Assembly (NCBI GenBank): GCA_028870115.1
Contig: JAGWQH010000097.1
Location: forward strand, 1 to 64,000
From: Candidatus Methylomirabilota bacterium
GTDB taxonomy: Bacteria; Methylomirabilota; Methylomirabilia; Methylomirabilales; Methylomirabilaceae
DNA length: 64,000 bases
Direction: 5' to 3'
Notes under the pieces: model-generated
The model's input: only the letters and a program-made list of their open reading frames with translations
Database searches by the model: none
Told to the model about the DNA's origin: nothing
Program-made: the position numbers and the translations under genes
Shown: positions 1-7,300 of the stretch, piece after piece
How the letters are laid out: every line of letters begins with the position of its first letter
How positions within the stretch are numbered: position 1 is the stretch's first letter

Positions 1-644
1 ATCCACTTGCCGTAGTAGCGCACGTCCTCGGCGAGGCCCTGGGCGCCCTTCCACTCGCGGGCGAGCAGCGACTTCTCACGACGTGATTCGGGATTCATCG
101 GTGGCATCCCGGCGAACTTGGGGGGAATCTCGATCATGGCCTTGTTGATCAGCACGGCGACCGGGTTCAGATCACTCGCGTACGCCTCGAGTCCCAGCCG
201 CTGTGCCTCGAGCGGCAGCGCGCCGCCGCCGGCGAACGGGTCGTGGAAGGCGGGCAGCTTGTGCCGGTCGAACAGCTCCTTCGCCCGCGGATGGTCCGCG
301 TTCTCGGCGCACGCCCGCCGCCAGCTCTGCCAGATCTCGTCCCGCGCCTGCTGGAGCACCTTCTCGTTGGTGGTGTTCTCCCACAGCACGAGGTTCTCGA
401 TGATGCGGAACAGCCGCTGCCGCTCCTTTTCCTGCTTCTTCTCGGTCGGAAACAGATCCGGGCAGCTCGACGGGTCATCCACCATCTGCGCGAAGATCAC
501 CGCCCGCGCCGCCGCCAACGGCCGCCTCGCCCACCACAGGTGCAAGGTGGAGGGGTGCCCATGCCGGATGGATTTCTCCCGCGCCGAGGCCTTGTTGATC
601 GCCTCCAGCGGCAACGCGACCTCGATGAGCTTCTTCTTGGTCAT
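1..644 (-). CDS. DUF1156-type adenine-specific DNA methylase (N-terminal part, runs off left edge)
   Basis: The reading frame is open from the ATG at 644 to the window edge, giving about 214 N-terminal residues. It begins [17 protein letters not shown] and continues with a basic segment ([22 protein letters not shown]) that is typical of DUF1156/COG1743 proteins. A SAM-binding motif, [13 protein letters not shown], follows near residue 140. Family members are large N6-adenine methylases of multi-gene anti-phage loci. The ATG overlaps the TGA of the RloB-like gene (ATGA), so the two are translationally coupled. The C-terminus, including the catalytic NPPY-type motif, lies outside the window. 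Whether the system is DISARM-like (drmA, drmB, drmC) or the DUF1156-DUF499-DUF3780-HerA type depends on genes further left. The family call is confident; the system name is not. Confidence 0.85.
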
Positions 645-1282
645 GGGGTTTCTTGTCCAGCCACTACCTGGAAATGTCGTAGAATTTGTTGGACGGAGGT
701 GTAGGGGTTGTAATCGTTGTTCCCGGCACGGGCTTCAAGCCATGCGGCATTTTCGATGGCAGTGTCTATGTGCGCAATGAGCTGCCTAGCGATTACGTTA
801 TCGGCCTTTTCGTAGCCCGGCATGTGGTTGCGCACACGGTCTATCACATTCGCACAACAGTCGAATGGGGCATCAGTCCTTTCAAAATGCAGCAGCACCC
901 ATACCTCGAAACACGGGATGGAAATAGCTTCTTCGATGGGCAGTGGTTTCTTTTTTCGATTGGCCATAGTCCTGATTTTCTGGCGCGCCTCATCAAAACT
1001 TGAGTGACTATTGCGGTCGAAGACACAATAAATCTTGTCATAGCTACCCGGTTCTCCACTTTTTTCCTTCGCACATTCGACCACACTGATGGGCGCGGAG
1101 CCTTTCGTGTTCTCGGCAAGGATGATCTCTGCCGTCGTCAGCCCATAATGGATTCGCGCTGCGCTGAGATATTCTTGCTCGGTCTCGCCCTCGCACACGA
1201 TGAGAGTGATGGATCGGGGAGATTTTTTCCCAGCCCGGCGCTGGAACGATCCATGGCTTCGCAGCTTCGAAATCCGGACCAT
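641..1282 (-). CDS. rloB: RloB-like Toprim-fold protein
   Basis: A 213-residue protein with the RloB family pattern: an early Toprim strand ending [12 protein letters not shown] (E31), a second acidic strand [15 protein letters not shown] (D89) and the block [12 protein letters not shown]. RloB proteins pair with RloA-type ATPases and are thought to act as nuclease effectors, as the ATPase/Toprim partners of PARIS and OLD-type systems do. The usual family text here is DRD; this copy reads DRN (N91), so one metal-binding acid may be lost. The gene starts three bases after the RloA stop and ends in an ATGA overlap with the methylase, making a tight operon. Family assignment is firm; nuclease activity is inferred. 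Confidence 0.8.
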
Positions 1283-1285
1283 TCA

Positions 1286-4215: not shown

Positions 4216-4323
4216 CTACATCGGTCCTGTCTGGAAGGACAATTCTGTCGCAGGAGCGGCTGGCTTCCGGCACGAGCGCTTACGCGGTGCCTCGTTGATG
4301 GCCTCCGCACGCCGAGAAGTCAT
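4216..4323 (-). pseudogene. Remnant of the methylase 5' end after the helicase
   Basis: A 35-codon frame whose ATG overlaps the helicase stop (ATGA). It reads MTSRRAEAINEAPRKRSCRK, which resembles the methylase opening MTKKK...[14 protein letters not shown] with about eight residues deleted. It then degenerates before a TAG. The similarity is short, but the coupling geometry is the same as at the other two junctions. Confidence 0.5.
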
Positions 4324-4397
4324 CGCGGCCCCTCCGCCCGCGCCAGCAGCTCGGCGAAGTCATAGTTGACGCTGGTGACGCCGAAATCCGGTTCGCG
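4320..4397 (-). repeat. Helicase 3'-end repeat, copy 1
   Basis: The genuine 3' end of the SNF2 helicase gene, duplicated at 2751-2828. Together with the methylase-start copies at 644, 2879 and 4323 it marks the borders of the two inserted cargo blocks. Confidence 0.85.
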
Positions 4398-7300
4398 GTG
4401 GAAGGGGCGGCGGACGTAGTGAACGCGGTGCGTGTCGCCTGCCTGCCCCGTGCCCGGTGCGACAGACAATCCGTCAAACTCGACGATGGCAAGAATGAAA
4501 TCGTCGGGCTTGTTCAGTGAATACAGAATCTCGTTCTTCGTGACGGTGATGGTCGGCGCGCCGGAGACCCGACCCTTGACTTCGAGGAAGCGCAGTTTGC
4601 CGGTACCGGGTATGCGGCTCTCGATGTCGTAGCCAAGCTTCTCGGTCTCGCGGTCGGTCGGGACAAAGCCAAGATCGCGTTCGGTTTGCATGACGATGGC
4701 GCGGGCCTTGGCAGCGGAGACCTGCGTATCTTCAACATGGGTCGGGACGGCGGCCTTCGACGTTCCTGTCATGGCGGCGAGCAAGCCGGCGGGAACAACG
4801 AGAAGCCCGCCCATGACGACCGGCGGAAGGGGCGCAATCTGCTTTTCGAGTTTCAGTTCCTCGAAACGCTTCTGAAGCCTCCCCTGTAAGGCATCGGCCC
4901 GCTTGCGGGCCTCGTCGGAGTTCAGGCGGGCATTGGTCCTGCCGGCCTGCTCCTGAAGTTTGAGTTGCTCGGCACGGTGATCCCAATAGCTGATTTCCTT
5001 CGTAAGCCGGTCCTGAACGGCGGCTTCAGTCTTGGCTATCAGGTCAAGGCGGCGGGACCGGACTTCCGCCAGGTGCTCCGGAACAACCTGGGCAACGGCG
5101 TATCCTTGGGCCTTCTGCTCCAGTTCGAAGTTGATCCACGCGCACTCGGGACGGGCAAGGATGGTATCCACACCCGGTTCGTCTTCGGTCATGGGCCGGT
5201 AGTCCAGGTAGGGCGCGTAGTGCATGTGGCGCGTGTTGCCGTCGGCATCGAGTTCGACGTAGAGCATGCGCTTGGACGCGATACGCCGGTCACCGGCGCG
5301 CGTGAGGCCGGCGTCGGCAATGGCGTGCTCCAGGTAGAACAACACGCGAGGTCTCGCGCCGATGTCCCGTTCGTCCACCAGGACTGCGCCCCGGCGCAGC
5401 AGGTCGCGGTGACGCTCCAGGATGAGGTCAATCGTGGCGTCCAATAGGGGGTGACCCGGACAGAGAAAGGCGGCGAGCGGCTGGCCCTGCGGAGCGACAA
5501 GGTTCTTCTCAAAAGCAATCCGCTCGTAGCGCGGCAGGACGGGCTCGCCGACACCGATCAGCCGATCCCGATTGCGCACAGGCGCGGGAACGTGGGTGAT
5601 CTCGTAGCGGCGGGATTCGCGTTGTTTGACGGACCCGCCAAGCCGCCGAAAGGCTTCGAGGAAGAAGGACTCAATGTAGTGCGGCTGTAGCCGACGGGCC
5701 TCGGCCCGTTCCATTTCCTCGCGTACGCGGAAGACGCGCGACGCGTCCATGCTGTCATGCGCGAGCGCCCGTTCTTCCAGCAGGTCCTGCAACTGGGCCT
5801 TGTCGAAGGCATTGGCTACGACCTGCGTCAAGCGCGCGCGGACTTCGGGCCGTTCGCCGTAACGGATGGCCTCGATCAGCAGGTCGCGCAAGGGTTTGCC
5901 TTCGAACTGGAGTTTGCCCAGCACGTCGAAGACCTGGCCGCCGAGCGCCTGGCGAGCCTGTTCCAGTTTGTCCAGCAAGGTACGATAGACATCGCCTTCG
6001 CGGGTCTCCTCAGCCACGAGATTCCAGAGGTGGCAGACTTCGGTTTGCCCGATACGATGAATGCGGCCGAACCGTTGCTCGATCCGGTTCGGATTCCAAG
6101 GCAGGTCGTAGTTGACCATCAGGTGAGCCCGTTGGAGATTGATCCCCTCGCCCGCGGCGTCCGTGGCAAGGAGAACCTGCACGTCGGGATCGTGCTTGAA
6201 CATTTCCTGGGCCTTCATTCGGTCCTCACGGCCCATCGCGCCGTGAATCGTCACAATCGCTTCGCGGCGTCCAAGCAATGTCGAGACGCGGTCCTCCAGG
6301 TATGTGAGTGTGTCGCGGTGCTCCGTGAACAGGACAAGCTTCTGGTGCGGGGATGGGGTTGGCGGAGGAATCGGGCCGGAGCCGTAGGGGACCGGCGCTT
6401 CCGCAACTCGGCCGGTCGCCGGGCCGGTCGCGAAGACTGTGCCCAGCAGTTTCGACAGTTCGCACCATTTCCGGTCTTCGCCGCTGCGGCGGAGAGCGAG
6501 GGCCAGCCCCTCAAGCCGTTTCAGTGTACTGATCTCCGCCTTCAGTTCCGTAATCGTGCGGGCGGCGGTCGCCTGGTCAAGGATCTCTTCCTCGGCGGTC
6601 TCGACTTCGTTATCAGGGGCGTCTTCCAGATCCTCAACGTCCTCAGCATCGAGTTCCGGGGCTCCGACGGCAATGGGCGCTGCATCCTCGTTGCCCCGTT
6701 GGAGCAGTTCCATTTCCCGTAGTTTACTTTCCAACCGCTCACGCCGGCGGCGGAGGGATTGGCAAATGGCCTCTGGTGACGAAGCAAGGCGGCGTTGGAG
6801 GATCGTGAGGGCAAAACCGACCGTGCCGGCGCGCTTGTCGTTTTGCAACGCCTCGGCCCGGTTGAACTCCTCGCGCACGTAGTCGGTGACTTCCTTGTAG
6901 AGCCGCGCCTCGGCGTCGGAGAGCTTGTAGGGAACGGTGTACGCGATACGCTCGGGAAACAGCGGCGTCGCGTCGAACTTCAACAGTCCTTCCTTGACCA
7001 TGCGGCGCATGAGGTCGGACACATCCGACACGTGGACGCCGTCCCGGAAACGTCCCTCGAACCGGTCGCCGTCGAGCAAGGCCATGAACAGTTGGAAGTC
7101 TTCTTCCTTCCCGTTGTGCGGTGTCGCCGTCATCAACAGGAAATGCCGAGTGAGCGTGGAGAGGAGTTGTCCGAGTTTGTAGCGCTTCGTGTATTTGACC
7201 TCGCCGCCGAACAGGCTGGCGGACATCTTATGCGCTTCGTCGCAGACAATCAGATCCCACCGGCAATCGGGGACCCTGAGCTTGTCCTGCACATCCTCGT

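What the first reader, a model, noticed from the sequence alone, without database searches (positions are those of the whole stretch)
641..4400. A recurring cargo slot between a defence helicase and its methylase
Three places show the junction of helicase end and methylase start. The true methylase start is at 644. A chimera of methylase start and helicase tail lies at 2751-2879, and a degenerate methylase start overlaps the helicase stop at 4323. Each is coupled by ATGA. The cargo genes (DUF4143 ATPase, then RloA-RloB) lie exactly between these copies. This looks like repeated insertion, by homologous recombination at the junction, of alternative effector modules into one operon slot. I know of no description of such a slot.
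Basis: partly seen in the sequence, partly recalled or inferred. Interest (0 to 1): 0.82.

Follow-up and report, generated by a model that had tools for sequence, protein, structure and literature searches.

The report
Stacked defence genes with recombination scars
Between two core genes of a bacterial anti-virus operon (Hma) there is a slot, already known to biologists, that holds interchangeable extra defence genes; in this genome two such modules sit one after the other, and short broken copies of the neighbouring core genes at their borders look like scars left when the modules were added by recombination.

Summary
In detail: 2751-2879 (minus) encodes the first 17 codons of the DUF1156 methylase fused in frame to the last 25 codons of the helicase. 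The third copy (4323) is weak. The system is not DISARM but Hma (HmaA 1695 bits against DrmD 397). In 72 related loci the hmaA-hmaB gap runs from a 4-base overlap (empty) to 7.4 kb; 57 are filled with very different defence genes, and cargo type is nearly random on the HmaA tree. The nearest relative (HmaA 95% identical, same genus) holds a Schlafen-AlbA gene instead. So the cargo slot is genuine, but it is already published as 'Hma-embedded' defences (Payne et al. 2024, known here only through citing papers); the window's cargo are the known PDC-S01 and AbiL/RloAB. These fossils lie at boundaries between cargo modules and fit additive recombination with other Hma operons, homologous at one end and illegitimate at the other. 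That stacking mechanism is the part I found no description of; it is inferred.

The parts
4320..7934 (-). hmaA, SNF2-like helicase with C-terminal NOV_C/DUF3883 domain (1204 aa); left border of the slot
   Evidence: PADLOC HmaA 1695 bits, DrmD 397; Pfam
4213..4323 (-). possible decayed hmaB head ('head 0'): 35-codon ORF MTSRRAEAINEAPRK... starting in the ATGA at the hmaA stop
   Evidence: GGAGGCCATCAACGAGGC matches the hmaB head 16/18; positional p about 0.002, not significant genome-wide
2879..4201 (-). cargo module 1: AAA_14/DUF4143 ATPase (440 aa), PDC-S01 family
   Evidence: Pfam; PADLOC PDC-S01 7.8e-87
2829..2879 (-). relic hmaB head ('head 1'), 17 codons, start overlaps the DUF4143 stop (TGATG)
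   Evidence: 93% over 41 bp to 595-635; E 1.1e-6 protein, 1.6e-12 DNA profile
2751..2828 (-). relic hmaA tail, 25 codons and stop, fused in frame to head 1
   Evidence: 80% over 84 bp to 4319-4402; E 1.8e-16; 15 nt but 3 aa differences from the resident tail
2606..2750 (-). AT-rich leader of rloAB with promoter-like TTGACT-N18-AATATT
   Evidence: core motif shared with the rloAB leader of L014
1286..2605 (-). cargo module 2a: rloA / AbiLi, OLD-type AAA_21 ATPase (439 aa; an ATG lies at 2590)
   Evidence: Pfam AAA_21, AbiLi 9e-98
641..1282 (-). cargo module 2b: rloB / AbiLii (213 aa); stop overlaps the hmaB start by ATGA
   Evidence: Pfam RloB 9e-35
3..644 (-). hmaB, DUF1156 adenine methylase, first 214 codons, cut by the contig edge
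   Evidence: Pfam DUF1156, PADLOC HmaB 399 bits

Best explanation
This is an Hma (DUF499-type BREX-related) defence operon whose hmaA-hmaB junction is an exchangeable slot for accessory defence genes. Here it carries two modules in series: a PDC-S01 ATPase, then RloAB/AbiL. Shown: slot contents turn over while hmaA, hmaB and hmaC stay in place. Inferred: contents usually change cleanly, by exchange with another Hma operon through the long homologies of hmaA and hmaB/hmaC. Occasionally the exchange is additive: incoming DNA carrying (hmaA tail)-cargo-hmaB recombines homologously in hmaB, while its other end is joined illegitimately into the first few dozen codons of the resident hmaB. The old hmaB head then remains as a short relic, sometimes fused to the donor's hmaA tail; the new cargo lies next to a newly supplied hmaB. 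In the window, head 1 plus relic tail would be the scar of the RloAB addition and head 0 perhaps that of the PDC-S01 addition. The modules probably act as backup or complementary anti-phage effectors carried by a transferable operon.
For: Slot: 72 loci with both ends; gap <=60 bp in 11, >300 bp in 57; 116 of 120 cargo ORFs on the operon strand; first cargo start overlaps the hmaA stop by exactly 4 bases in 26 of 57, last stop overlaps the hmaB start in 18. Turnover: cargo types need 33 changes on the HmaA tree, shuffled mean 37.7; sacsin-like cargo 7 changes for 7 rows. Sister operons: window vs G013, hmaA about 89% identical DNA to the stop, then unrelated cargo; L033/L061, hmaA 92% and hmaC 90% with different cargo and hmaB; L039/L042, filled vs empty; L028/L031, stacked modules of which one has been deleted. 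Scars: extra heads in window, L062, L010, L014 and extra tails in window, L014; none in 790-820 kb of flanks. Each lies between two parts of the slot, upstream of the material next to hmaB. Captured, not freshly duplicated: relic tail vs resident tail 15 nt but 3 aa differences, neutral expectation 9.8, none of 5000 simulations as low. Direction: the resident hmaA tail pairs with the sister genome's tail (8 differences) while the relic tail does not (15), and the relic head is nearer the sister's head than the intact head is (3 vs 5 of 42; not significant). One-ended homologous plus illegitimate recombination is an established process (PMC3240628).
Against: Clear scars occur in only 4 of about 65 filled or partly seen slots, so this can explain only a minority of cargo gains. 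The sequences that decide direction are 42-78 bp long. The L014 relic tail is close to its own resident tail, which local duplication would also give. The chimera joint can only be argued to have a 5-base microhomology (TCAAT) by assuming a donor hmaA with an NREPDF ending, as in L017, L028 and L070. hmaB of the window is cut by the contig edge, so mosaicism within hmaB could not be tested. The 36/38 match of the hmaB start in L033/L061 is not exceptional among heads and was not used.
Confidence: 0.62

Rival explanations
1. Import anchored in hmaA instead: the incoming fragment was hmaA-PDC-S01-hmaB head, recombined homologously in or before hmaA, and its far end joined the resident hmaA tail. 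The relic tail would then be the original resident tail.
For: Gives the same anatomy; hmaA flanks are unrelated between window and sister genome, so whole-operon transfer does occur.
Against: hmaA matches the sister uniformly from its start to the stop, so a crossover inside hmaA is not visible; relic head is slightly nearer the sister's head than the intact head is.
Confidence: 0.17
2. Local tandem duplication of (hmaA tail - cargo - hmaB head) in one operon, followed by replacement of one of the two cargo copies.
For: In L014 relic and resident tail share the rare GATS variant and are about 85-90% identical; tandem duplication is common.
Against: In the window the differences between relic and resident tail are mostly synonymous, as expected if the tail diverged while functional in another operon; no locus with duplicated cargo was seen; three head relics have no tail at all.
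Confidence: 0.14
3. The short head ORFs are kept for a purpose: as translational-coupling linkers that carry ribosomes from one module to the next.
For: The window chimera and the L062 relic (57 aa) are open reading frames whose start and stop overlap the neighbouring genes (and sequence).
Against: L014 and L010 relics are frameshifted or broken; most cargo borders have none; rloA has its own leader.
Confidence: 0.05
4. Chance similarity or mis-assembly.
For: The window is a metagenome-type assembly with a contig edge in hmaB.
Against: E-values far below controls, in-frame chimera, copies 80% rather than 100% identical, an independent case in L014.
Confidence: 0.02

Closest known systems
Hma-embedded candidates (HEC-01 onward) and PDC systems, 'guilt-by-embedding' (Payne et al. 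2024 preprint, doi 10.1101/2024.01.29.577857; read only through PMC12255303, PMC11411939, PMC12111858, PMC12988326)
   Same: Defence genes lying between hma genes; window module 1 is PDC-S01; loci here carry HEC-07, PDC-S02 and Septu.
   Different: The citing papers mention no relic hmaB heads, hmaA-tail chimeras or recombination route at this slot; whether the preprint does could not be checked.
DUF499-centred BREX-related (BR) systems with auxiliary and backup effectors (PMC12839542, 2026)
   Same: Same helicase-MTase-DUF499 core; Schlafen, OLD/TOPRIM, HNH, REase effectors embedded in the operon.
   Different: A word search of that text found no mention of recombination.
Embedded modules between hsdS and hsdR of type I restriction systems (DarTG2: PMC12255303; TgvAB: PMC11411939; Rlo genes of Campylobacter)
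   Same: Accessory defence genes nested between core genes of a larger defence operon; PMC12255303 calls hsdS-hsdR a potential recombination hotspot.
   Different: Different core operon; no border relics reported in the passages read.
Homology-facilitated illegitimate recombination (PMC3240628 and naturally competent species)
   Same: One homologous and one illegitimate joint, adding DNA next to the homology.
   Different: Known from laboratory transformation or conjugation; here it is inferred from relics only.

Membership tests
Hma system | HmaA helicase | tested here: met
   1695 bits over residues 1-1202
Hma system | HmaB DUF1156 methylase in the same operon | tested here: met
   399 bits for the 214 codons present, same strand
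Hma system | HmaC DUF499 ATPase downstream | tested here: inconclusive
   Contig C97 ends inside hmaB; contig C25 of the same genome carries a different hmaB allele (87% DNA) followed by HmaC, 1119 bits
DISARM (drmD) | DrmD as best match of the helicase | tested here: not met
   DrmD 397 bits against HmaA 1695
DISARM (drmD) | drmA/drmB/drmC in the operon | not tested
   the contig ends inside the methylase; no dedicated search was made
Hma-embedded / PDC-S01 | PDC-S01 protein inside an hma operon | tested here: met
   7.8e-87, lies between hmaA and hmaB
RloAB / AbiL | OLD-type ATPase plus RloB (PF13707) pair | tested here: met
   AbiLi 9e-98; RloB 9e-35
Site-specific cassette slot (integron-like) | a shared recombination site at both borders of different cargo | tested here: not met
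   no hmaA-tail or hmaB-head copy at the borders of most cargo; other kinds of site were not searched for systematically

The most novel reading that the evidence does not exclude
Hma operons act as slowly growing recorders: modules are repeatedly added at the 5' end of hmaB by one-ended homologous recombination, each addition leaving an hmaB-head relic, so that relics date and order the acquisition of accessory defences across many phyla; the relic heads may even be kept as coupling linkers.
Probability: 0.2. Interest if true: 0.65.

Novelty: new member of a known kind. Interest (0 to 1): 0.42.

Why it matters
How defence operons gain nested accessory systems is an open question. The relics give direct, datable traces of at least some of these events and suggest that the conserved ends of hmaA and hmaB serve as landing homology. 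If confirmed on a large scale, the order and source of stacked defence modules could be read from sequence, and related operons (BREX, type I restriction) could be searched for the same scars.

Tried and rejected
(1) drmD/DISARM identity: rejected on profile scores. (2) A shared border repeat as an attachment site: rejected, most slots have none. (3) Common descent of the window and L014 scars: disfavoured; the L014 relic tail resembles its own resident tail and the joints differ (25 vs about 70 codons of tail). (4) The 36/38 base identity of the hmaB start in L033/L061 as a recombination patch: rejected, many unrelated pairs are as alike. (5) Same scars in the hmaB-hmaC slot (filled in 20 of 56): none that could not be explained by a frameshifted or duplicated hmaB. 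(6) Plasmid collection: the head-tail peptide matched resident heads and tails only; the one record covering most of it (Meiothermus) is an ordinary empty junction.

Full report
WHAT IS THERE. Read on the minus strand the operon is hmaA (7934-4320), a DUF4143 ATPase (4201-2879), a 42-codon ORF (2879-2751), rloA (2605-1286), rloB (1282-641) and the start of hmaB (644-3, contig edge). The helicase is HmaA (1695 bits; best DrmD model 397), the methylase HmaB, the DUF4143 protein PDC-S01, RloA/RloB the AbiL pair.

THE REPEATS. The 42-codon ORF is the first 17 codons of an hmaB joined in frame to the last 25 codons of an hmaA. Profiles of hmaB heads and hmaA tails, made from related loci and run over 68 slots, six frames, gave both matches in the window at E 1e-6 and 2e-16; codon-shuffled slots and 790 kb of flanks gave nothing comparable, and DNA profiles agree (820 kb of flanks). 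The third copy, just after the hmaA stop, is plausible by position (p about 0.002) but not significant on its own.

THE SLOT. Eighty HmaA relatives were fetched from genome contigs and 14 from viral contigs. With these and a few same-genus loci, 72 show both ends of the slot: 11 are empty or nearly so, four of them with overlapping stop and start (ATGA or TGATG), and 57 hold more than 300 bp. Cargo includes Schlafen-AlbA, DUF4062-HATPase, Septu, RloAB, GmrSD, PDC-S02 (YhcG), HEC-07, sacsin-like ATPases of 1400 aa, MqsA-type toxin-antitoxin, ClpP- and trypsin-like proteases, PRTase and DUF4143. 116 of 120 cargo ORFs follow the operon. A second slot, hmaB-hmaC, is filled in 20 of 56.

TURNOVER. 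On a tree of 71 HmaA proteins the five slot states need 33 changes, near the 37.7 of shuffled labels. Pairs of close operons make it concrete. Window and G013 (same genus) have hmaA 95% identical in protein and about 89% in DNA, lie in unrelated surroundings, and carry DUF4143-RloAB and a Schlafen-AlbA gene respectively. L033/L061: hmaA 92% and hmaC 90% identical DNA, with different cargo and a different hmaB in between. L039/L042: filled and empty. L028/L031: the same Septu pair, with a GmrSD module in front of it in L031 and only the last part of its second gene left in L028, a deletion.

SCARS. Besides the window, L014 has, between a Schlafen-AlbA/ParA module and its RloAB, a broken hmaB head (KLIDVVPLLEATN-stop) followed by a decayed piece of some 70 codons of hmaA tail. 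L062 has a 57-codon hmaB-head ORF between an AlbA gene and a DUF4062 gene, with overlapping start and stop. L010 has a degenerate head after its ClpP-like gene. All lie on the operon strand, at a boundary inside the slot. RloAB in L005 and L052 shows no such copy.

HOW IT MAY WORK. The clean majority is best explained by ordinary double crossover between Hma operons, using the long homology of the core genes; this is inferred from conserved flanks. The scars need one homologous and one illegitimate joint, which adds rather than replaces cargo; the process is known as homology-facilitated illegitimate recombination. In the window the relic tail differs from the resident tail by 15 bases but 3 residues (neutral expectation 9.8), so the two diverged while both were functional: the relic was imported or replaced, not freshly duplicated. 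The resident tail pairs with the sister genome (8 differences) and the relic does not (15); the relic head is nearer the sister's than the intact head is (3 against 5 of 42, too few to decide). This mildly favours import through hmaB. The RloAB module carries its own conserved leader and promoter-like site, fitting a self-contained module.

WHAT IS KNOWN. Hma was named in 2021 (PMC8565338); the same core was treated in 2026 as DUF499-centred BREX-related systems with embedded auxiliary effectors. Defence genes embedded in Hma operons were reported by Payne et al. in 2024 as HEC and PDC; that preprint is not held and I know its content only from citing papers. The slot itself is therefore not new. 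I found no account of the scars, but could not read the preprint.

VERDICT. Observation partly confirmed, interpretation partly supported; a known slot, a good example of stacking, and a small set of recombination fossils that would repay a larger survey.

Noticed in passing
window 1-425 and contig C25 of the same genome (L115:58-482): Two hmaB alleles, 87% identical, lie at the ends of two contigs of one genome; C25 continues with a DUF4062-HATPase gene and HmaC. Two Hma operons or mixed strains.
   Followed up: partly
L121:5627-10746: Two hmaB-like genes in tandem (39% identical; the second, about 778 aa, is shorter at its end), a possible duplicated or second specificity methylase in an Hma operon on a viral-collection contig.
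   Followed up: partly
L063:4494-4662 and L057:17187-17225: A GC-rich repeat of about 38 bases occurs four times in the hmaA-hmaB slot of L063 and once between hmaB and hmaC of the close relative L057.
   Followed up: no
L117 (G000 contig C28, 22000-40000): The window's genome has a second, distant HmaA-like helicase (36%) with an HmaB-like methylase downstream, probably another BREX-related system.
   Followed up: no
L052:13836-17398: Two genes of about 600 aa on the opposite strand inside the slot, a rare exception to the operon orientation.
   Followed up: no
L018:13396 and the hmaB region: hmaA is frameshifted near its end and hmaB is interrupted: a decaying Hma operon, 83% identical to the window's HmaA.
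   Followed up: no
L143 (Thermus brockianus plasmid pTB1): In a cultured organism a Fic family gene occupies the hmaA-hmaB slot and small HTH/sigma-like genes the hmaB-hmaC slot.
   Followed up: no
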